A DNA stretch of 64,000 nt from a virus, in IMG/VR virus record IMGVR_UViG_3300036893_000049, positions 21,260 to 85,259 of that record; one strand, 5' to 3'. Made by a program: the position numbers and the translations under genes. The first letter of the stretch is position 1; the number at the start of each line of letters is the position of its first letter. Below, in pieces: positions 4,092 to 44,915 of this stretch. The notes under the pieces were generated by a model. That model saw only the letters and a list, made by a program, of their open reading frames with translations. It did no database searches and was not told the DNA's origin.

Positions 4092-4337
4092 ATGAGCAAC
4101 GCCCAGATCACCCGAAACACACGCAACCTCACGATGCGCCTCCCGCTCGACCTCTATAATAAGGCGCGGGAGAAGGCGTCTGGGGGTAGCCTGAAGCCGG
4201 TCATCGAGGCTGGACTCCGTGAGGCGTGGGATATGCCGGTGGTAATATCTGGTGAGGGGGCTGACACGTCGGTGAGCGAACCTACTGAGGAAATCGAGGT
4301 CACGTCCGAGATGATCGAGGCGCGGAAGGTGGGATGA
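4092..4337 (+). CDS. Ribbon-helix-helix type DNA-binding protein
   Basis: 81 residues. Residues 10-45 fit the RHH pattern: a short beta strand (NLTMRLPLDLYNKAR) followed by two helices ending GLREAW. The C-terminal tail is acidic. RHH proteins dimerise and bind repeated operators. The gene lies 30 bp after four TATTGCGC repeats and overlaps tnpB by ATGA, so it probably controls its own promoter and that of tnpB. The family call is by pattern only. Confidence 0.6.
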   Translation: MSNAQITRNTRNLTMRLPLDLYNKAREKASGGSLKPVIEAGLREAWDMPVVISGEGADTSVSEPTEEIEVTSEMIEARKVG

Positions 4338-5560
4338 GGGTGGTCATGCAGGCCACGAAAGGACGGCTCTACGGCGGCGGACTCGGAACCGTCGCGCGGA
4401 TCGGCGGCCAGTGCCGGGCCGTGTGGAACCTGTTCGTTGCGGAGAGCGCCGAACGCTATAAGGCCGAGGGCAAGTTCGTTTTCTATGCTGAAATGTCGGC
4501 TCGGCTGCCGAAGTTGTTGAAGGAAGACGCGCGCCTTGCCGGGTTGCCGCACCGCGCGGCACAGATGACCGTGCAGAAGCTGGATCGGGCGTTGCGCGAC
4601 TGCGCCAAGAGCAAGGGGAAGGCGCGACGCGGCTTTCCGCGCTTCAAGAAATACGCTGACAGGTCCGACGCTTTTTCGTTCGTTGGCCGCGAGGTCCGCG
4701 TTGAACCGGGTCGCATCCGACTGCCGAAGGTCGGCTGGCTTCGCGTGCGCGGCATGACCTTGCCCGATGGCGCTGACATGAAGCAGGTCGCCGTGACGCA
4801 AGAGCCGAATGGCTGGCACGTCTCCATCCAGTTCGAAGCCGCGCCGAAGCTCTACGCCGTGCCGACGCTTCCTGCGGTCGGTATCGACGGCGGCTTGATC
4901 CATCTGGCGACACTGAGCGACGGCACCCTCATTCCGCATCCACGGCTTGCCAGGAAGGCCGCGAAGCGGCTGCGCCGGTTGAACCGGGAACGCGATCGGC
5001 GGCGCAAGGGCAGCGTGAACCGCCGACGCACCGTGGCCAAACTCGGGCGCGCACATCGCGCGCTGGGCAACGCCCGCAAGGATGCGATGCACAAGGCCAC
5101 CCGGAAACTGGTGGACACATACGGCGGCTTCGCCGTCGAGGATTTGAGCCTGCGAGGCATGATGCGGACCCGGATGGCGGGTTCGCTGGCCGATGCTGGG
5201 CTGGGAGAGTTCGTCAGGACGCTCCACTACAAGGCCGATTGGGCGGGGCGAACGTGGCACGTTCACGGGCGCTTCGAACGCAGCACGGGCGTCTGTCCGG
5301 ACTGCGGCCAAGTCGGCGGCAAGCTTGCCCTGTCCGTCAGGAGTTGGGTTTGCGATAGCTGCGGCGCGGTTCACGATCGCGACGTTGCCGCCGCCAGGGT
5401 GATCCTGGCTGGCGCGGTACTGCCAGTGGGGCAGGAACCGTCGGCTGCGATGCCGAGAAAGCGAGGCGCTGCCGCTCGTGGCGGGGATCGGGCATCCGCT
5501 CGGTCTAGTCACGGCGGGCCACCTCCGAATGTTGCCGATGCTCTGCCGGAGGCTGCATGA
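4334..5560 (+). CDS. tnpB: TnpB RNA-guided nuclease (IS200/IS605-type), catalytic residues intact
   Basis: 408 residues, the usual TnpB length. The RuvC-like triad is visible: Asp185 in AVGIDGGLIHLATLSDG, Glu269 in FAVEDLSLRGM and Asp350 in HDRDVAAARVIL. The zinc ribbon is CPDC (321-324) and CDSC (340-343). TnpB proteins are omega-RNA-guided DNA nucleases that normally sit with a TnpA transposase. No tnpA is nearby, and the start overlaps the RHH gene by ATGA, so this copy may be a non-mobile, regulated gene. The C-terminal 45 residues are a basic low-complexity tail. The guide RNA would lie at or just past the 3' end, but I cannot fix its boundary. Confidence 0.9.
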   Translation: MRVVMQATKGRLYGGGLGTVARIGGQCRAVWNLFVAESAERYKAEGKFVFYAEMSARLPKLLKEDARLAGLPHRAAQMTVQKLDRALRDCAKSKGKARRGFPRFKKYADRSDAFSFVGREVRVEPGRIRLPKVGWLRVRGMTLPDGADMKQVAVTQEPNGWHVSIQFEAAPKLYAVPTLPAVGIDGGLIHLATLSDGTLIPHPRLARKAAKRLRRLNRERDRRRKGSVNRRRTVAKLGRAHRALGNARKDAMHKATRKLVDTYGGFAVEDLSLRGMMRTRMAGSLADAGLGEFVRTLHYKADWAGRTWHVHGRFERSTGVCPDCGQVGGKLALSVRSWVCDSCGAVHDRDVAAARVILAGAVLPVGQEPSAAMPRKRGAAARGGDRASARSSHGGPPPNVADALPEAA

Positions 5561-36970: not shown

Positions 36971-37165
36971 ATGATCGGTCTGTTGGTCAATCTGCTGATT
37001 CTGTGCCTCATCGTGGGGCTGATCTGGTGGGTCATCACCATGATCCCGCTTCCCGCGCCGTTCGCACTGATTGTCCGCGTCGTGTTCGCGGTGATCCTCG
37101 TCATCGCCCTCATAGATTGGCTGACCGGGTTTACTGGTGTTGGGCGGCGGTATCATATTCTTTGA
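36971..37165 (+). CDS. Small two-span membrane protein, 64 aa
   Basis: Begins MIGLLVNLLILCLIVGLIWW. Two membrane segments (residues 2-24 and 30-50) and a short polar tail GVGRRYHIL. GGGAG stands before the ATG. It resembles a widespread family of tiny Thivi-2564-like membrane proteins in proteobacteria. Role unknown. Confidence 0.65.
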   Translation: MIGLLVNLLILCLIVGLIWWVITMIPLPAPFALIVRVVFAVILVIALIDWLTGFTGVGRRYHIL

Positions 37166-37211
37166 GGGGTGGCGGCCCCCTAAGAATGTGCTATATGTTG
37201 AAAGGCCATAG

Positions 37212-37282
37212 GGCGAGCGCAGAGAGTCGAACCCTGGTCTCGGGGGTACGAGCCCCGCGTCCTACCGCTGAACGACGCTCGC
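37212..37282 (-). tRNA. tRNA-Thr (anticodon CGT)
   Basis: Leftward cloverleaf: acceptor GCGAGCG paired with CGCTCGC, D arm GTTC/GGAC with GG in the loop, anticodon stem CGGGG/CCCCG with loop CTCGTAC (anticodon CGT, reading ACG), short variable loop, T arm CAGGG/CTCTG with loop TTCGACT. CCA is not encoded. Invariant T8, A14, T33 and the T-loop TTC are in place. It may supply a codon that is rare in the host; I cannot compare usage without the host. Confidence 0.85.
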
Positions 37283-37321
37283 CATATTGGCCGCCATAGC
37301 ACCATCTGGTGCCGACTATCC

Positions 37322-37369
37322 GGGCCGCTCCCTTCCACTTTCCTAGGGCGTTGGGGAGCGGCCCTTCTT
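37322..37369 (+). terminator. Possible terminator hairpin
   Basis: Perfect stem GGGCCGCTCCC / GGGAGCGGCCC (37322-37332 with 37354-37364), 21-base loop, followed by TTCTTA. The T tract is weak. It may end a rightward transcript from 36971 or be a structured RNA. Confidence 0.5.
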
Positions 37370-37545
37370 ATCCTCACCCCCGGCACGGGTAGTGACTCAG
37401 TTTGATTTTGGCTGCGGACGGAAGTCCTAGAGGCCAGGTACAAACATAGCTGTGTTGCGGGGTACGTTGCGAAGACGTTCTGTTTATCCTGTCTATTCTC
37501 TCAGATATCTACCACAATCATCGCTAGGCAACCAGCGGTGGAACC

Positions 37546-37758
37546 ATGCAACAAGCAGACCCTACGCATCCCAAACGTGATGCAGAGTTCACACACATCT
37601 CCGGTGGCAACGATAACGACGAGCCTCCGGTCAACGCGGTAGCGTTCACTGATTTGGCATCAGCGATGGGGATGGATGAGGACGCCTTGTTGCAGAGGTT
37701 TGCCGCGATCCTCCGCAAAAGAGAGGGTGGCGAAGATACAACCCCGGCGGAAGAGTGA
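37546..37758 (+). CDS. Small acidic protein, 70 aa
   Basis: Begins MQQADPTHPKRDAEFTHISG. The C-terminal half is a helix (AMGMDEDALLQRFAAIL). It is acidic overall and unknown. It is followed by a GTGA-coupled frame and then, about 340 bp on, by a strong terminator. Confidence 0.6.
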   Translation: MQQADPTHPKRDAEFTHISGGNDNDEPPVNAVAFTDLASAMGMDEDALLQRFAAILRKREGGEDTTPAEE

Positions 37759-37961
37759 CGCCGATGGACTGGGGTCAACTCCTGGATGGGGATCATCCAG
37801 GAGTCGCCAGTTCCGGGTCCTCGCGGAGAGAGCGTCTATCCCCCGCGCGAGAAACGGAGTCCAGGCGTGTGCGCGCTTGGCCCCACAGGTTCCCTGTGAG
37901 TCTGGTAGCACAAGTCTTGGCTCCTATCAAAGGGACTTTTGGGCTTTTGTGGCGTTTTTGA
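37755..37961 (+). CDS. Doubtful 68-aa frame
   Basis: A GTG overlaps the upstream stop (GTGA) and opens a 68-codon frame (MTPMDWGQLLDGDHPGVASS). It carries a perfect hairpin near its start and basic low-complexity sequence, so it may be non-coding RNA instead. Confidence 0.3.
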   Translation: MTPMDWGQLLDGDHPGVASSGSSRRERLSPARETESRRVRAWPHRFPVSLVAQVLAPIKGTFGLLWRF

Positions 37962-38123
37962 TTCTGAGGTATGTGCCGCGACACTCGGTTGAGACGGCTG
38001 CCTTCGCGGTCGATTGGGCGTTTGGTCCACTCGGCTGAATTATAGACCCGATCACCTGACCACGCCATACGTCACCAGAACCACCTGAGGGGCGGACGCT
38101 CCGGGGGAAACTCCGGGGCGTTT
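37759..38123. other. Largely non-coding 3' region with hairpin and terminator
   Basis: Apart from the doubtful frame, no gene is supported here. There is a perfect 11-bp stem (37778-37788 with 37794-37804, loop GGGAT) and, at the end, a strong terminator at 38096. The stretch may be a long 3' untranslated region or a small RNA. Confidence 0.4.
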
Positions 38124-38125
38124 TT
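38096..38125 (+). terminator. Intrinsic terminator
   Basis: Nine-pair stem ACGCTCCGG / CCGGGGCGT (one T-G pair) with an eight-base loop, followed by five T. It ends the rightward unit that starts at 37546 and stands next to the convergent end of the RNA-repair operon. Confidence 0.75.
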
Positions 38126-38285
38126 ATTTGTCCTCCGCGATTCGCGCGATCTCCGCCAGCCTCTTCCGCAATCGCTCGATTTCCGCGGCGGCGTCAGCCA
38201 GCAAGACGTAGCCGATGCCGACTTCCTCCGCGGTCAGGCGGGGGTGGAGGCGGTAGAATCTCAGGCGATCGATCAGTCCGGGCAT
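38124..38285 (-). CDS. Small coiled-coil protein after rtcB
   Basis: 53 residues beginning MPGLIDRLRFYRLHPRLTAE. The C-terminal half (AAAEIERLRKRLAEIARIAE) is a clear coiled coil. Its ATG lies one base after the rtcB stop, so it is cotranslated with it. It is the last gene of the leftward operon. Function unknown. Confidence 0.65.
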   Translation of the reverse strand: MPGLIDRLRFYRLHPRLTAEEVGIGYVLLADAAAEIERLRKRLAEIARIAEDK

Positions 38286-38286
38286 C

Positions 38287-39648
38287 TCAGTCTTTCCAAG
38301 GATCATCGATTCCGTCTCCCGCCATCGCCACGGCGAATGGCCGTAGTGTGTGCAGCACTCGCGTCGAGGCCGCGTGGTGAGCCAGCACTTCCGGCAAACG
38401 GCGATAAGCCATCGGACTTTCGTCCAGACCGCCGCCCGCCAGTAACACGCCGCGATCTTGCAACCACGCCTCCATCTGGGTACGGGTGAACGTGCGAATC
38501 GCTTGTTTCCGCCCGAATAATCGCCCGGCACCGTGGACCGTCGAGTAGAGCGCATCCTTCGCTTCTTGGCAGTCAACACCTTCCAAGATCACAGCGTCAT
38601 CGCCCATGGAGCCGCCAACAAAGCCCTTTTGGCCGGGGAAGGCTGGAGTTGCACCTTTTCGAACTACCCAGAGATCACGGCCGTTATGCGTTTCGCGCCA
38701 CGCGTAATTATGATGGTTGTGAACCATTTCGGTCACTGAGCCGCCGATGATCTGGCGAACACGTTCAACCACCCATTCACGACCGGCGTAAGAGTACCTT
38801 CCGGCCAATTGCATCGCCGCGATATAACGGCGGCCGACTTCACTATCTTCATCGACCACGGCGGGTGCAACGTTCATGCCGTCTTTCCCGCCAGCCGCTT
38901 TCAGATATCGTGTCGCGCTGGTGTGACCGAAACCGCGAGAACCGAAGTGGACGCCGATCCAAACGAAATCGTCTTCATCTCGCATGAGATCGACATAATG
39001 GTTGCCTGATCCGACCGTTCCTAGCTGTGCGACGGCTTTTGAGCGGTATTCACCCATGTCGGATTCGCGCCATGCGTCGCTGTCGTCAAAGAGTTCATGT
39101 TCCACGCGCTCCTCATTGGTGCGACCGACGCCGAATGAAATAACCTTGCGGACATCTTCAAGGATTGGATGGATACGATCCTGGATATCGGAAAATGGCG
39201 TGTCCAGGCGAACGGCCATGTTGCCGCATCCGATATCGAAACCGACACCGGAAATGCTGATCTGCTTTTCATAAGCGATCACGCCCCCAACAGGTTGCGC
39301 GTAACCAAGATGACCGTCCGCGCAAATCACGCCCTTAACCGCGTTGCCGATAGCCATGCAGTTTCGCATCTGAGCGATGGTGTTGGGATCGTGATCGCCG
39401 AAGATCGTCAGAGGACTGTCGCGGAATCGTTCCTCCTGCGGGCGCAGATTGACGATGCTGGCCGCGAGGTCCGCTGCCTCCCTGGCGTTTTGCGCCGAAC
39501 GGGCAGCATCGCGGAAATCGCACCATGCGGGCATACCCCGCTCACTGCCGGGTTTCGCGACACGCGAATCCGGATCGATGCCTTTAGCCTGGCACATTTC
39601 GCGTGCGGCGACTTCCAATGGATCGGCTCGACGTGTTGAAACAGACAT
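38287..39648 (-). CDS. rtcB: RtcB RNA ligase
   Basis: 453 residues. All family marks are present: ADGHLGY (Asp111, His113), GFDIGCG with Cys141, GTVGSGNHYVDL, HFGSRGFGH, HNHHN (310-314), GGSMGD and HGAGR with His372, the residue that is guanylated. RtcB joins RNA 2',3'-cyclic phosphate (or 3'-phosphate) ends to 5'-OH ends using GTP and manganese, which repairs tRNAs cut by anticodon nucleases. AAGGAGAGAG precedes the ATG. The tRNA-like RNA starts about 97 bases upstream on the same strand, with a nucleotidyltransferase before it. Phage copies are known to counter host tRNA cleavage; that use is inferred here. Confidence 0.95.
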   Translation of the reverse strand: MSVSTRRADPLEVAAREMCQAKGIDPDSRVAKPGSERGMPAWCDFRDAARSAQNAREAADLAASIVNLRPQEERFRDSPLTIFGDHDPNTIAQMRNCMAIGNAVKGVICADGHLGYAQPVGGVIAYEKQISISGVGFDIGCGNMAVRLDTPFSDIQDRIHPILEDVRKVISFGVGRTNEERVEHELFDDSDAWRESDMGEYRSKAVAQLGTVGSGNHYVDLMRDEDDFVWIGVHFGSRGFGHTSATRYLKAAGGKDGMNVAPAVVDEDSEVGRRYIAAMQLAGRYSYAGREWVVERVRQIIGGSVTEMVHNHHNYAWRETHNGRDLWVVRKGATPAFPGQKGFVGGSMGDDAVILEGVDCQEAKDALYSTVHGAGRLFGRKQAIRTFTRTQMEAWLQDRGVLLAGGGLDESPMAYRRLPEVLAHHAASTRVLHTLRPFAVAMAGDGIDDPWKD

Positions 39649-39669
39649 AACTCTCTCCTTCTATAAGGC

Positions 39670-39745
39670 ATCGCCGCACGGGACTCGAACCCGCCGCCTA
39701 TCCGTTAGTGGCCACTGTGCAGTTCCGACGTTTGCACACGGCGAT
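39670..39745 (-). ncRNA. tRNA-like RNA without canonical anticodon arm
   Basis: 76 bases in the 105-bp gap between the nucleotidyltransferase and rtcB, same strand. The acceptor stem TCGCCGT/GCGGCGA (with a G-U pair; an extra A-T pair is possible outside it) and the T arm GCGGG-TTCGAGT-CCCGT are tRNA-perfect. The D region forms a long six-pair stem TGTGCA/TGCACA with an 11-base loop containing GG. Where the anticodon arm should be, only GTGGCCAC (self-complementary, no loop) and a weak GCC/GGC pairing are seen, and no U33-anticodon loop can be drawn. No CCA is encoded. It could be a decayed tRNA or a functional tRNA mimic such as those in bacterial Y RNAs linked to rtcBA operons. Confidence 0.6.
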
Positions 39746-39751
39746 ATGGGA

Positions 39752-40732
39752 TCACAAAATCGCGGTTCGATAAGCATCCTTCACGATAGCGTCGATCACG
39801 CCGTGGTCCGGCGTCTCGGGCAGTGCGGATACCTCCTCCTCTGCTTCTACTCGTTCCAACAAATCCTCGATTTCCTCCGCGACGGCGGCATAGGGCAGTT
39901 CGCCTTTCTTGATCGCCAGAATATGCTTGGCGTTCAGCAGTGGAAAGGTGATATGGCCAGATCGCAACAGTTCCAGAGCCTCGCCGCCAACTCGCACCGC
40001 ATGAGAAAGCGCCTTCCAATCGACGTTTTCGTTACGTTCGGCCTGCAACGCGCGGGCGCCATATTCGTCCAGTAGTCGAACATAGATCGCGCGCGTATCC
40101 TTCAACGATGTGAAGAACGGTGCCTTACGGTTACAGCATTCAAGATGCGGGATCGGATCGGGACGGCTTGGATGCGGGATAAATATGATCGCGGTATGAT
40201 CGAGTTTATGTTCCGCGATGAACGTAGGCAGCGTGTCTGCCGCGATCTCCAACTTTGCCAGATGCCCGTATTCCATGATGGCCTGGTCAAACCAATTCAC
40301 GATCTCGCGGGCGGCATGAACGCGCGAGCCTTTGATTCCATATTTGTTTGCCTGAGTTCGGCAATAGCCAATGAAGCTGGCGGCACGACGGCTCAACAAC
40401 TGATGGCGACAATCCCAGATACGGCCCCAGATCGGATCGGGATCGCATGTCATAGCCCATCGTGGCGCAAACAGCATGTCCAGAGCAACGGTCTGCCCTT
40501 CTGCCAGCAATGACAAATACCGATGGAGCGCATAAGCCTCCCGGTCGATATCGCCCGCGACGTTCTTTTCGCCAGTCTGCTTGGGTCGTTTGTCTGTTAC
40601 CGTCGCTTTAACGCGTTGCAATAGGATCGCGTCCGCGTCTGGCACAAACACGGTTTTGTAATCCACGTCCGACGCTGGCGTGGACGTGCCGTAGAGGTGC
40701 GAGCCAAACTTGATCTCGACAAGGGTTTTCAC
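39752..40732 (-). CDS. COG3541-type nucleotidyltransferase
   Basis: 326 residues from a GTG overlapping the upstream stop (GTGA). The N-terminus FGSHLYGTSTPASDVDYK has the polymerase-beta-type GS motif (Gly10-Ser11) and the two Asp (22, 24) that bind metal. Residues about 60-150 include ALHRYLSLLAEGQTVALDML. This matches the YcgL-like predicted nucleotidyltransferases (COG3541). Such enzymes add nucleotides to RNA or proteins. Its position just before a tRNA-like RNA and rtcB suggests RNA end processing or tagging; that is inference. Confidence 0.85.
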   Translation of the reverse strand: MKTLVEIKFGSHLYGTSTPASDVDYKTVFVPDADAILLQRVKATVTDKRPKQTGEKNVAGDIDREAYALHRYLSLLAEGQTVALDMLFAPRWAMTCDPDPIWGRIWDCRHQLLSRRAASFIGYCRTQANKYGIKGSRVHAAREIVNWFDQAIMEYGHLAKLEIAADTLPTFIAEHKLDHTAIIFIPHPSRPDPIPHLECCNRKAPFFTSLKDTRAIYVRLLDEYGARALQAERNENVDWKALSHAVRVGGEALELLRSGHITFPLLNAKHILAIKKGELPYAAVAEEIEDLLERVEAEEEVSALPETPDHGVIDAIVKDAYRTAIL

Positions 40733-41145
40733 GACTTATCTCCAAACATCGCCGCGAACCGTTCTCGTAGAATTTGCTCGGCCTTAGCAGTCAGGATTTG
40801 TTCAATTGCGGGGTTCAATTCTTTCCACGTCTCATTGATACGTTCGAGGATCATCTTATTGATCGCACCATGCGTCACATCGTTGATGAACGCCGCCGCC
40901 ATCGCGGTCATGGTGTCCGCGAGCATCTTTTGATATTTGGTCGCGATGGTTTTTTTATACCAATCGTCTTGAATCATCTCGCTCTTGAGGAACGAATTAA
41001 TATGGGCTTCAACCGCCTCTCGTGTGGTGCGGCGCGCGATTTCCTGCGCTACCTGAGCCGCGCCAGTTCTGGCCAATTCAACCGTGGCTTCGGGGTCCAG
41101 TTCCAGCAATTTCGCGATTGCCGGTGCGCTCAGCAGCAGTTTCAT
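40729..41145 (-). CDS. Helical hypothetical protein of the RNA-repair operon
   Basis: 138 residues from the ATG in ATGA overlap with the upstream gene, beginning MKLLLSAPAIAKLLELDPEA. It is nearly all helix, with repeated charged stretches (EAVEAHINSFLKSEMIQDDW). It may be a structural partner of the nucleotidyltransferase, to which it is coupled by GTGA. No family recognised. Confidence 0.65.
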   Translation of the reverse strand: MKLLLSAPAIAKLLELDPEATVELARTGAAQVAQEIARRTTREAVEAHINSFLKSEMIQDDWYKKTIATKYQKMLADTMTAMAAAFINDVTHGAINKMILERINETWKELNPAIEQILTAKAEQILRERFAAMFGDKS

Positions 41146-41351
41146 AAAAAAGCACTCGCTCTCATGGCTTTCCGAACGGCATGGTCCCACGGTTCGGAAT
41201 TGTGTGGCAGCACGACGGCATACTCGCCGCCCTTCTTATCGACCCGGTAGCGGATCGCGATGTGATCGCCGGACGGCTCGTGGAGATACACGCTCAGTTC
41301 CCCGGCGCGGTCGAAAATGGTCAGTTGCGTGCCAGACATCCCACCCTCCAA
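41142..41351 (-). CDS. Small hypothetical protein, 69 aa
   Basis: Begins MSGTQLTIFDRAGELSVYLH after GGAGGGTGGG. A beta pattern (HIAIRYRVDKKGGEYAVVLP) and a C-terminal helix (DHAVRKAMRASAFL). It is preceded by a 12-bp stem hairpin and coupled to the next gene. Role unknown. Confidence 0.65.
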   Translation of the reverse strand: MEGGMSGTQLTIFDRAGELSVYLHEPSGDHIAIRYRVDKKGGEYAVVLPHNSEPWDHAVRKAMRASAFL

Positions 41352-41359
41352 AATCCCCG

Positions 41360-41422
41360 CCCCGGCCAGCGCAGACGCGGGGTGTCTGTAGAGCCGGGAC
41401 TATTCCCCGTCGCTGGCCGGGG
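41360..41422 (-). promoter_or_regulatory. Structured leader or attenuator-like hairpin
   Basis: Perfect 12-bp stem (41360-41371 with 41411-41422, CCCCGGCCAGCG and its complement) with a 39-base loop that has smaller G/C stems inside. On the leftward strand it is followed by GCGGGGATTTTGGAGGG, so it could end transcripts or control the gene at 41142. Confidence 0.5.
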
Positions 41423-41490
41423 AGTGGTGGATACGACGATTGGGGTTGACAGATCAATGCACCCGATCTTTTGAAGCAACCGGACGGTTT

Positions 41491-41982
41491 TCATACCGCC
41501 CCCATCTTTCTCAAAAAATCCCGGGCGACCTCCGCGACCGGCAGCGGGTGAGTGGCCCCCTCCGCTACATCCGGCTTGCTCCGGTCCTTAGCCGTATGCT
41601 CGATCAGACCAAGTATCGATTGTTCCCGCAACGCTTCACGCAGTGCAGGTGGCGAAATGTCATTGGCCTTGGCGAGACCATTAGATATGGTACGAAATCC
41701 CCGCCGCGCCTGACTACGAATACGGGCACGAGCCGTTTGACCGATTTTGTGCAGATCGTCAGGAACGACGCGTTTATATCCAACACGGCGCACGGAAGCG
41801 AATACCGCGCCATTTTCTCGTTCAACGACAAAAATCGCGCGATAAAGAAGATACCGGCATACGTTAATGTTCCGGCCGATTGCCTTACTGAAATCGTCGA
41901 ATGTCAACGTTTCGCCAAAAGGACAAGCGGCGAGAAGGTCCGCGAGGATGCGGGTGTCCTGGTGTAACTCCATGACGATCAT
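41491..41982 (-). CDS. Hypothetical protein, possible winged-helix
   Basis: 163 residues beginning MIVMELHQDTRILADLLAAC. Residues 20-75 (LTFDDFSKAIGRNINVCRYL, then ASVRRVGYKRV) look like a winged-helix domain with its wing. The middle is basic (RARIRSQARRGFRT). It follows a 15-unit GTGNN array and a CAGGAGCC site. It may be a regulator or RNA-binding protein. Confidence 0.65.
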   Translation of the reverse strand: MIVMELHQDTRILADLLAACPFGETLTFDDFSKAIGRNINVCRYLLYRAIFVVERENGAVFASVRRVGYKRVVPDDLHKIGQTARARIRSQARRGFRTISNGLAKANDISPPALREALREQSILGLIEHTAKDRSKPDVAEGATHPLPVAEVARDFLRKMGAV

Positions 41983-41999
41983 GGGAAGGCTCCTGTATT

Positions 42000-42074
42000 G
42001 TGTCGTGCTGTGCGGTGGTGTGGCGTGACGTGTCGTGCGGTGCCGTGGTGTGGAGTGGTGTGCTGTGGTGTGAT
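42000..42074 (-). repeat. Pentamer array GTGNN x15 (CACNN on transcript strand)
   Basis: Fifteen uninterrupted 5-bp units, each GTG plus two varied bases, counted from 42000. On the leftward transcript they read CACNN and end just before the ribosome binding site of the gene at 41982. A period of five is not compatible with a coding tract. Confidence 0.85.
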
Positions 42075-42144: not shown

Positions 42145-42738
42145 TCATGCAACCATCTGGCGATTATCCTGCCAGACCAGTTTATCCAGAACGAAGCGGC
42201 CATTGTGACCGCCATTTTGTGGCCGGAACTGGCCGATTCCAATAAAGAGGCCAGCAAGTTCCACCATGTCCCGGAAAACGGGCTCGACGATGATCGGGTC
42301 CAGGATGATGATTTCGAATGTCGATGACCATTCCCGAACCACGGGAAAGCGGCGCACGACTCGTTTGCCTGAACCCCGGACACCATCGGCGTTGGCTGAG
42401 ATCGTAACCATCATCGCCTCTGAGGGATCGATATTCAGGATTGGTGCGGCGGGGATCATCACGCCGCTGGTGAACTTGGCGGACCATGTGGCCTTCCCCT
42501 GGCCCGGGATTTGGATTTTTGAATATTTCGCCGCCGCGATCAGGCATTGGTGAAAACCGTGCGGTGGAATAATGATGGTTTTTTTGCCGTCGTGTTCCTC
42601 GATGGACAATTTGCTACGCCATGTCCTGGCGTCATAGGCATCTGGCGACTCGCCTTCGAGCCGCGGGTCATTGTGTTGCCGGGACTGACTGTACGGCGCG
42701 GTGCCACGGAGGGTCAGTTGAGCGATGGTGTATTGCAT
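42145..42738 (-). CDS. Hypothetical protein with FRPQNGG motif
   Basis: 197 residues beginning MQYTIAQLTLRGTAPYSQSR. It is a beta-rich fold with conserved-looking blocks: PPHGFHQCLIAAAKYSKIQI near 78 and GIGQFRPQNGGHNGRFVLDK near 168. The glycine-rich FRPQNGG segment is a common mark of a phage family of unknown function. A 19-unit GTGNN array lies before its AAGGAACC-like site. First gene of the leftward operon. Confidence 0.7.
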   Translation of the reverse strand: MQYTIAQLTLRGTAPYSQSRQHNDPRLEGESPDAYDARTWRSKLSIEEHDGKKTIIIPPHGFHQCLIAAAKYSKIQIPGQGKATWSAKFTSGVMIPAAPILNIDPSEAMMVTISANADGVRGSGKRVVRRFPVVREWSSTFEIIILDPIIVEPVFRDMVELAGLFIGIGQFRPQNGGHNGRFVLDKLVWQDNRQMVA

Positions 42739-42755: not shown

Positions 42756-42850
42756 GTGAAGTGATGTGTCGTGGAGTGGCGTGATGTGTCGTGGAGTGGC
42801 GTGGTGTGGCGTGGAGTGGCGTGGAGTGGCGTGGCGTGATGTGATGTGCG
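42756..42850 (-). repeat. Pentamer array GTGNN x19 (CACNN on transcript strand)
   Basis: Nineteen uninterrupted GTGNN units, followed by one imperfect unit (GCGCG) and one more GTGGC. The array lies in the leader of the gene at 42145-42738. Many units recur in pairs (GTGGA-GTGGC), giving a weaker 10-bp period. Confidence 0.85.
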
Positions 42851-43352: not shown

Positions 43353-43762
43353 CCAGTATCTGGGGCAAACAGGAAAAACAGTTCAGATTGCACCGGGCAC
43401 AGAACGGCCTTTGCGCGCTGTGCGGAGATGACCTGAAACTGGCCGAGGCGACTTTCGATCACATCATCCCGAAGTCGAAACACGGGCCTTCAACGATTGA
43501 TAACCTTCAACTGGCACATAGATCGTGCAACAACAAGAAGGGCGATAAGATTGTCGCGCCGCTCCAACTATCGGGGAAAATTCGCAAGCGCGTGTTGCAC
43601 GCGCTGGTGATGGAGCGGCTTTGCCGTCGAGACATTGACGAACGAAAGGGAAATTATATAGTTGATTCCCTTCGGCAATCTGGTAATATTGCCGGATCGG
43701 GTGGCGCTACCAACGCCAGTCCCGATCCTGACCTCGACGGAAGGTTACTCCGCGTTGGCTGA
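43349..43762 (+). CDS. HNH endonuclease
   Basis: 137 residues from GTG. The HNH core is clear: CALCGDD, then FDHIIPKSKHG, then LQLAHRSCNNKKGD, with zinc-type Cys pairs around it. The C-terminus (LDGRLLRVG) overlaps the long frame of the following tnpB. Phage HNH enzymes act as homing or packaging nucleases; here it stands between an RHH gene and a TnpB nuclease. Confidence 0.85.
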   Translation: MTSIWGKQEKQFRLHRAQNGLCALCGDDLKLAEATFDHIIPKSKHGPSTIDNLQLAHRSCNNKKGDKIVAPLQLSGKIRKRVLHALVMERLCRRDIDERKGNYIVDSLRQSGNIAGSGGATNASPDPDLDGRLLRVG

Positions 43763-43781
43763 CCCTATCGTAGCGACTCAG

Positions 43782-44915
43782 ATGCTCACATGGAAGTGTC
43801 GTTTGCTCCCAAGCAAAGGCCAGCATGACAAATTGCGCGCTGCACTAAGCCATACCCGCGACCTCTACAATGCCGCCTTGGCTGAGCGCATCGACTGTTA
43901 CCGGAAAACCGGCAAAGGGCGCTCTTTTTTCGACCAGGCTAAGGGCCTTACCGAACTCCGCGCCGATCCGGGCTGGGCAACCTATTCTGTCGCCATGCAA
44001 CGCTGGCCGCTGAAACAAGTCGATCTTGCCTTCGCCGCCTTCTTTCGACGCATCAAGGCGCGGGACGGAAAAGCCGGATTTCCGCGATTTCGGGGCCGCG
44101 AATGGTTCAAGACGTTCGGTTTTTCGGATCGCGGCGGCTGGCGCGTGGACGGCAACCGGCTGCGGCTGAAGGGCATAGGGTCTGTTCGTATTCACCTCCA
44201 TCGCCCCCTCCCTTCTGTGCCAATCGCCTGTAAGGTGAAACGCGAGGGCCGGAATTGGTATGCGCTGCTGACCGTCGAGACGCCTTGCGCGGCCTTCCAC
44301 CCCGGCCCGGCTGTCGGAATCGACATGGGCATCACGACCATGGCGGCGCTTTCGACCGGCGAACTGATCGCCAACGCACGCCCAGTCAAGCGGGCTGAGA
44401 GAGAAATGCGGAGACGCCAGAGACAGATCGCGCGATGCAAGAGAGGATCGAATCGTCGCCGCGAGGTCAAGGCGCGGGTGGCATCGCTGCACGCCAAGAT
44501 CACCCGGACGCGCGAAACGCATCTGCATCAGGTGTCGGCATCGCTCACGGCCCGGTTCGGCACGATTGCCATCGAGAAGTTGAACGTCAAGGGCCTGGCT
44601 GGCGGAATGCTCGCCAAGCAGGTCAATGACGTTGCATGGGGTCGCTTCATAGGTATGCTGCGCTATAAGGCTGCAAGGGCCGGTGGCACAGTGATTGAGG
44701 TTGATCCTCGCGGAACAAGTCAGACCTGCCCTGAGTGCGGCGTCATCAAGAAAAAGGAACTCTCGCAACGCGTCCACCGATGCGATTGCGGCTGTATCCT
44801 TGATCGCGATGTCGCCGCTGCGAAGGTCATTCTAATCCGGGCCGGGAATGGTCCGGGAGGCCGCAACGCTGGTGCTACAAGGCGTGGTCTCGAAAAGATA
44901 TGCGAGGCTGCCTGA
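43782..44915 (+). CDS. tnpB: TnpB RNA-guided nuclease, second copy
   Basis: 377 residues from the ATG giving MLTWKCRLLPSKGQHDKLRA, which is the usual TnpB N-terminus; the frame itself opens at 43662. RuvC residues are present: Asp181 (VGIDMGITTMAAL), Glu265 (IAIEKLNVKGL), Asp343 (LDRDVAAAKVIL), with zinc Cys at 316, 319 and around 334. It is clearly diverged from the copy at 4334, so the two are not a recent duplication. No tnpA is near. Its 3' end, the usual place of the guide RNA, is followed closely by the holin gene. Confidence 0.9.
   Translation: MLTWKCRLLPSKGQHDKLRAALSHTRDLYNAALAERIDCYRKTGKGRSFFDQAKGLTELRADPGWATYSVAMQRWPLKQVDLAFAAFFRRIKARDGKAGFPRFRGREWFKTFGFSDRGGWRVDGNRLRLKGIGSVRIHLHRPLPSVPIACKVKREGRNWYALLTVETPCAAFHPGPAVGIDMGITTMAALSTGELIANARPVKRAEREMRRRQRQIARCKRGSNRRREVKARVASLHAKITRTRETHLHQVSASLTARFGTIAIEKLNVKGLAGGMLAKQVNDVAWGRFIGMLRYKAARAGGTVIEVDPRGTSQTCPECGVIKKKELSQRVHRCDCGCILDRDVAAAKVILIRAGNGPGGRNAGATRRGLEKICEAA

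What the first reader, a model, noticed from the sequence alone, without database searches (positions are those of the whole stretch)
38124..41145. Phage RNA-repair operon: RtcB, tRNA-like RNA and COG3541 nucleotidyltransferase
Seen: a leftward unit in which a nucleotidyltransferase (GS and DVD motifs), a tRNA-like RNA and an intact RtcB ligase follow one another without other genes, joined by GTGA/ATGA coupling to two unknown genes upstream. Known: RtcB heals tRNAs cut by anticodon nucleases, and rtcB loci of some bacteria encode tRNA-mimic Y RNAs. Inference: the phage carries a self-contained system in which the nucleotidyltransferase and the ligase act on cut tRNA ends or on the local RNA, to defeat host tRNA-cleaving defences.
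Basis: partly seen in the sequence, partly recalled or inferred. Interest (0 to 1): 0.9.

Follow-up and report, generated by a model that had tools for sequence, protein, structure and literature searches.

The report
Phage tRNA-repair genes around tRNA-like RNA
A phage carries two tRNA-mending enzymes (an RtcB ligase and an RlaP nucleotidyltransferase) with a tRNA-shaped but apparently non-decoding RNA gene between them; the enzyme pair recurs near tRNA genes in other phages and fits published predictions, while the RNA's role is open.

Summary
On the minus strand: ORF69 - ORF138 - RlaP-family nucleotidyltransferase (NT) - tRNA-like RNA - rtcB, with ATGA and GTGA overlaps. RtcB keeps its metal-binding and guanylylated residues; NT keeps GS..D.D. 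The RNA starts 6 nt after the NT stop and folds with acceptor (8 bp), D and T arms in normal tRNA order, but its anticodon arm is defective (3 bp, 11-nt loop), it lacks CCA, and ARAGORN and Rfam reject it.

The exact order NT-RNA-rtcB was found nowhere else. The parts recur: same-subfamily rtcB and NT are neighbours in L141, L143 and L077; rtcB lies within 5 kb of NT in 5 of 10 RtcB-bearing NT records (1.5 expected, P=0.007). Real tRNA genes (His, Thr) abut NT in other phages. This RtcB clade also sits inside phage and mobile tRNA arrays, and beside a Ro/TROVE gene and YrlA-like RNAs in Bradyrhizobium.

Best reading: a phage tRNA-repair module in which RlaP restores lost nucleotides, RtcB reseals, and the RNA is a degenerate or decoy phage tRNA. 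RtcB plus RlaP as phage tRNA repair is already published as a prediction. The RNA is not a Y RNA. New variant of a known kind; the RNA's function is unproven.

The parts
38287..39648 (-). rtcB, RNA ligase, 453 aa, with an N-terminal extension of about 80 aa shared by its clade
   Evidence: PF01139 E=9.9e-64; active-site residues aligned to 4dwr
39667..39745 (-). tRNA-like RNA: 8-bp acceptor-like stem, 5-bp D-like arm with GG in the loop, 3-bp arm with 11-nt loop in the anticodon position, T arm GCGGG-TTCGAGT-CCCGT, ends ..GCC without encoded CCA
   Evidence: sequence and fold; not called by ARAGORN; best Rfam hit tRNA-Sec 19.7 bits, below the gathering score
39752..40732 (-). RlaP / phrog_388 (T4 nrdC.11-type) nucleotidyltransferase, 326 aa
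   Evidence: PF10127 E=2.5e-14, phrog_388 E=9e-76, confident predicted structure, pLDDT 91.7
40729..41145 (-). ORF138, unknown function, overlaps NT by GTGA; not found next to NT elsewhere
41142..41351 (-). ORF69, unknown function, overlaps ORF138 by ATGA; a homologue directly precedes NT in L136, L137 and L189
38124..38285 (-). 53-aa ORF starting just after the rtcB stop; possibly part of the unit, no family found for the longer ORF that holds it
37211..37282 (-). tRNA-Thr(CGU), the only recognisable tRNA gene of the record, 1 kb downstream of rtcB on the same strand, no encoded CCA

Best explanation
The unit is a phage tRNA-repair module. When host or phage tRNAs are cut (leaving 2',3'-cyclic phosphate and 5'-OH ends, sometimes with lost nucleotides), the RlaP-type nucleotidyltransferase restores missing nucleotides and RtcB reseals the break, so translation of phage genes goes on. 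The RNA between them is a phage-borne tRNA gene that kept the acceptor, D and T arms needed to be seen as a tRNA by processing and repair enzymes but lost a usable anticodon arm: most likely a decayed tRNA of a former tRNA-rtcB cassette, possibly a retained decoy. Shown here: genes, active-site residues, coupling, RNA anatomy, recurrent neighbourhood with tRNA genes and with each other. Inferred: the substrates, the order of action, the anti-defence purpose, and that the RNA is expressed.
For: Family and active-site evidence. Same-subfamily RtcB (75, 59 and 78% identity) and NT (56, 53 and 52%) lie together in L141, L143 and L077 in different gene orders. Of 50 NT-bearing virus records 10 carry RtcB and 23 carry RtcB or a PF09414/PF09511 ligase; 5 of the 10 have rtcB within 5 kb of NT against 1.5 expected, P=0.007. 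Cr30, phiM12, IME-CF2 and Phynn carry NT with Rnl-type ligases and no RtcB, while Erythrobacter phage L02 and the window record have RtcB and no PF09511 ligase. Real tRNA genes abut NT in L153, L157 and L208 (expected 0.32, P=0.004). This RtcB clade sits in or beside tRNA clusters in L007, L010, L013, L015, L016, L024, L045, L075, L079 and others. Published predictions: RlaP restores lost nucleotides before ligation and its distribution mirrors RNA ligases in jumbo phages (PMC7824862); phage RtcB suggested to counter tRNA cleavage (PMC3203893).
Against: No experiment. All 18 virus records with close RtcB relatives lack a PF10127 match (many are fragments). The exact order with an RNA between is unique to the window. 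The closest NT relatives (L136 80%, L137 77%) have no rtcB or tRNA beside them. Phage RtcB may act on mRNA or rRNA instead of tRNA.
Confidence: 0.6

Rival explanations
1. The tRNA-like RNA is a functional, dedicated tRNA mimic (decoy for anticodon nucleases, or a platform or regulator for RtcB or RlaP), analogous to the Y RNAs of host rtcB loci but of independent origin.
For: D and T arms and an 8-bp acceptor are intact while only the anticodon arm is defective; it lies 6 nt after NT and ends next to the rtcB ribosome-binding site; the same RtcB clade is found with YrlA-like tRNA mimics in Bradyrhizobium; a competitive-inhibitor role for YrlA has been proposed (PMC7790460).
Against: Single example, so no covariation; folding energy not below shuffles; no relative found in viral contigs, phages or plasmids.
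Confidence: 0.25
2. The RNA is a processing signal: RNase P and 3' tRNA processing cut the transcript at the tRNA-like element and separate the NT and rtcB messages (tRNA punctuation).
For: It fills the gap between the two cistrons; real tRNAs abut NT in L153, L157 and L208.
Against: Most relatives have no such element between cistrons; the promoter and terminator scan gives no evidence either way.
Confidence: 0.15
3. The neighbourhood is ordinary gene mosaicism: a tRNA-rtcB cassette inserted beside an unrelated ORF69-NT pair, with no joint function.
For: ORF69-NT occurs without rtcB in L136 and L137, and rtcB occurs without NT in most relatives.
Against: Repeated rtcB-NT neighbourhoods and clustering P=0.007; RNA-ligase co-occurrence in NT phages.
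Confidence: 0.2
4. The nucleotidyltransferase makes a signal oligonucleotide rather than repairing RNA (HalB-like), and RtcB is unrelated.
For: The closest solved folds are the Hailong HalB nucleotidyltransferase and aminoglycoside nucleotidyltransferases, but weakly (E=1.6e-3, TM 0.34).
Against: No PADLOC match for these genes; the family is RlaP/phrog_388 by sequence and its phage relatives match by fold with E down to 3e-21.
Confidence: 0.05

Closest known systems
Phage RtcB plus RlaP RNA-repair complement (predicted in jumbo phages, PMC7824862; RlaP = PF10127)
   Same: Same two enzyme families in one phage genome, predicted to restore nucleotides and reseal tRNAs
   Different: Here in one compact unit, in a phage record of 85 kb, with a tRNA-like RNA between them
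T4-type tRNA repair (Pnkp and Rnl1 against PrrC; NT relative nrdC.11)
   Same: The NT belongs to the family of T4-like nrdC.11; purpose probably the same
   Different: The ligase here is RtcB, not a PF09511/PF09414 ligase, neither of which was found in the record
Bacterial rsr-yrlBA-rtcBA RNA repair operon with Y RNA (PMC7790460)
   Same: rtcB next to a tRNA-shaped RNA; Bradyrhizobium relatives of this very RtcB have TROVE and YrlA-like RNAs
   Different: No TROVE in the record; the RNA has normal D-to-T order with an open acceptor, not the permuted YrlA module
Cluster K1 mycobacteriophage RtcB plus tRNA-Trp (PMC3203893)
   Same: A phage with RtcB and a tRNA, proposed to counter host tRNA cleavage
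   Different: There the genes lie far apart and no PF10127 match was found in Angelica

Membership tests
RtcB (PF01139) RNA ligase | Family profile match above cut-off | tested here: met
   216.5 bits against 27
RtcB (PF01139) RNA ligase | Mn2+ ligands and guanylylated histidine | tested here: met
   D138, C141, N216, H217, H234, H313, H372 aligned to 4dwr; E206 is D220
RtcB (PF01139) RNA ligase | Ligation of 2',3'-cP or 3'-P to 5'-OH ends | not testable with these tools
   needs purified protein
RlaP (PF10127) / phrog_388 nucleotidyltransferase | Profile match and GS..D.D motif | tested here: met
   54 bits against 23, phrog_388 E=9e-76, invariant G10 S11 D22 D24
RlaP (PF10127) / phrog_388 nucleotidyltransferase | Association with RNA ligases | tested here: met
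   5 of 5 named NT phages and 23 of 50 virus records, many of them fragments
Bacterial Y RNA (YrlA, RF02553) | Covariance model match | tested here: not met
   no YrlA hit in 37000-41500 even at E<=10; Bradyrhizobium loci give up to 40 bits
Bacterial Y RNA (YrlA, RF02553) | Permuted tRNA-like module (T arm before D arm) | tested here: not met
   window RNA has D arm before T arm; the YrlA consensus is the reverse
Bacterial Y RNA (YrlA, RF02553) | Ro/TROVE partner in the genome | tested here: not met
   no PF05731 in the 85-kb record; the record may be incomplete
Functional tRNA gene | Cloverleaf with 5-bp anticodon stem and 7-nt loop, detected by tRNA finders | tested here: not met
   ARAGORN none, Rfam tRNA none above the gathering score; 3-bp arm with 11-nt loop

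The most novel reading that the evidence does not exclude
The phage encodes a dedicated non-decoding tRNA mimic inside its RtcB-RlaP operon that acts as a decoy or sensor for tRNA-cutting defences, or as a cofactor RNA for the repair enzymes: a phage counterpart, independently evolved, of the Y RNAs that accompany the same RtcB clade in host chromosomes.
Probability: 0.15. Interest if true: 0.75.

Novelty: new variant of a known kind. Interest (0 to 1): 0.45.

Why it matters
Phage tRNAs and phage RNA ligases are mostly discussed apart. Here rtcB, an RlaP nucleotidyltransferase and tRNA or tRNA-like genes are neighbours, and the RtcB clade recurs inside whole tRNA arrays in phages and in Bradyrhizobium. 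That makes it directly testable whether phages carry matched sets of tRNAs and tRNA-mending enzymes against tRNA-cutting immunity, and whether a tRNA without a usable anticodon can serve as a decoy.

Tried and rejected
Y RNA membership: rejected (no YrlA match, order not permuted, no TROVE). Relatives of the RNA by DNA: the one viral pattern hit (L107) is a chance match inside a coding gene; blastn against phages finds only the T-arm half of unrelated tRNAs, plasmids nothing useful. Homology of the RNA to particular array tRNAs: best alignments rest on the T arm, no convincing z-score. A defence-system reading: no PADLOC match. Degenerate tRNA-like elements after other NT genes: none convincing besides the real tRNAs. 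The second RlaP of L077 as a probe found no viral relative. Tree of RtcB: viral and cellular rows interleave, at least 8 label changes forced, so exchange was frequent, direction not resolved.

Full report
WHAT IS THERE. The window is bases 21260-85259 of an 85-kb virus record; it has a terminase and a portal gene, so it is a tailed phage. The minus strand from 41351 down to 38287 reads ORF69, ORF138, NT, tRNA-like RNA, rtcB. ORF69/ORF138 overlap by ATGA and ORF138/NT by GTGA. rtcB (453 aa, PF01139 E=9.9e-64) is intact: D138, C141, N216, H217, H234, H313 and H372 align with the metal ligands and guanylylated histidine of P. horikoshii RtcB, with E206 replaced by D220. NT is RlaP by Pfam and phrog_388 by PHROGs, a family that includes the nrdC.11 gene of T4-like phages. 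GS and D-x-D are invariant in 22 aligned sequences, and the predicted structure (pLDDT 91.7) matches other phage nucleotidyltransferases (E down to 3e-21) and, only weakly, solved nucleotidyltransferases such as HalB.

THE RNA. It runs from 39745 to about 39667 (-), starting 6 nt after the NT stop. Acceptor AUCGCCGU/GCGGCGAU, D-like arm GUGCA-AACGUCGGAAC-UGCAC with a GG, a 3-bp arm GCC/GGC with an 11-nt loop where the anticodon arm should be, T arm GCGGG-UUCGAGU-CCCGU, then GCC with no encoded CCA. ARAGORN does not call it and Rfam's best is tRNA-Sec at 19.7 bits, below the gathering score. A perfect 7-bp acceptor plus 5-bp T arm is expected 0.15 times per shuffled window on both strands; the window has two, this and the real tRNA-Thr at 37211-37282. 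Folding energy alone is not unusual. So it is very probably a real tRNA-like element, but not a decoding tRNA. No relative was found, hence no covariation test was possible.

CO-OCCURRENCE. A profile of nine NTs brought in 80 NT loci from viral contigs. Five have rtcB within 5 kb on the same strand. In L141 RtcB is 75% and NT 56% identical to the window's, in L143 59% and 53%. L143 has tRNA-Pro and tRNA-Thr upstream of rtcB and a tRNA-Met directly upstream of NT. In L077, a Rhodospirillales MAG, rtcB is followed within a few bases by NT and then a second RlaP. Burkholderia phage FLC9 has RlaP, one gene, rtcB. Of 50 NT records 10 carry RtcB, 17 PF09414 and 8 PF09511; 23 carry at least one. Five of the ten RtcB-bearing ones have it within 5 kb of NT; random placement gives 1.5, P=0.007. 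Cr30, phiM12, IME-CF2 and Phynn carry PF09511 and PF09414 ligases with NT and no RtcB; Erythrobacter phage L02 has RtcB and no PF09511; the window record has RtcB only. In 15 sampled RtcB phages RlaP passes the cut-off in five. So the pairing is real at genome level and sometimes at operon level, but it is loose: the other virus records with close relatives of this RtcB had no PF10127 match, though many are fragments.

LINK TO tRNA GENES. Real tRNA genes start within -40 to +60 of the NT stop in L153 (His), L157 (His) and L208 (Thr), against 0.32 expected (P=0.004; L153 and L157 may share descent). The RtcB clade lies within 500 nt of a tRNA in L007, L010, L013, L015, L016, L024, L032, L039, L045, L052, L060, L075, L079, L098 and L106. 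In L045 (Bradyrhizobium sp. BR13661) rtcB lies inside an array of 24 tRNAs, and in L075 it follows 22 tRNAs. In the library searched I found no paper describing rtcB inside tRNA arrays; the nearest is Anabaena, where one repressor controls both a tRNA operon and rtcB (PMC10272220). In a Bradyrhizobium chromosome (L071) the same RtcB clade is preceded by a TROVE/Ro protein (E=3.7e-12), and L026, L061, L067 and L071 carry YrlA-like RNAs (up to 40 bits, below Rfam's gathering score of 69). The phage record has no TROVE match.

MECHANISM. From the known chemistry of RtcB and the published prediction for RlaP (PMC7824862), the most likely action is: RlaP refills ends that lost nucleotides, RtcB joins 2',3'-cyclic-phosphate or 3'-phosphate to 5'-OH ends. 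Substrates are inferred to be tRNAs because of the neighbourhood. The RNA may be a decayed tRNA of a tRNA-rtcB cassette (my first choice), a retained decoy or mimic, or a processing signal. I cannot separate these by sequence.

VERDICT. Observation confirmed; interpretation partly supported. RtcB plus RlaP as phage tRNA repair is a known, predicted kind; the compact unit with a tRNA-like RNA, and its clade's association with tRNA arrays, make it a new variant. That the RNA is a Y RNA was tested and not met; that it may work like one is open.

Noticed in passing
L045 1257-6546; L075 59-3947: rtcB of the same clade embedded in, or following, tRNA arrays of 22-24 genes covering most amino acids (Bradyrhizobium sp. 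BR13661 contig; Xanthobacteraceae MAG). Several array tRNA-like genes have odd D arms or long variable regions (e.g. L045 3811-3889, 5518-5597).
   Followed up: partly
L071 2265-3895 and similar Bradyrhizobium loci: YrlA-like RNAs below Rfam's gathering score upstream of a TROVE/Ro gene that directly precedes rtcB: probably unannotated Y RNAs of Bradyrhizobium.
   Followed up: partly
L153 5975-6048; L157 5471-5546: A tRNA-His gene overlaps the last codons of the NT gene in two phages.
   Followed up: partly
window 37986-38037: DUF3800-VI RNA motif (Rfam RF02915, 50.3 bits) on the + strand between rtcB and tRNA-Thr, with a terminator-like hairpin at 38094-38123.
   Followed up: no
window 4334-5560, 43662-44915 and 52705-53751: Two OrfB_IS605/TnpB-type genes and an IS1595-type transposase in the phage record.
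   Followed up: no
window 41999-42072 and 42761-42848: GTG-rich short tandem repeats (periods 10 and 20) flanking an ORF of unknown function at 42145-42738.
   Followed up: no
L141 579-5972: Virus record with rtcB, a 678-aa unknown gene, a 131-aa ORF, an HD_4 domain gene and NT in one row: perhaps a larger RNA-repair operon.
   Followed up: partly
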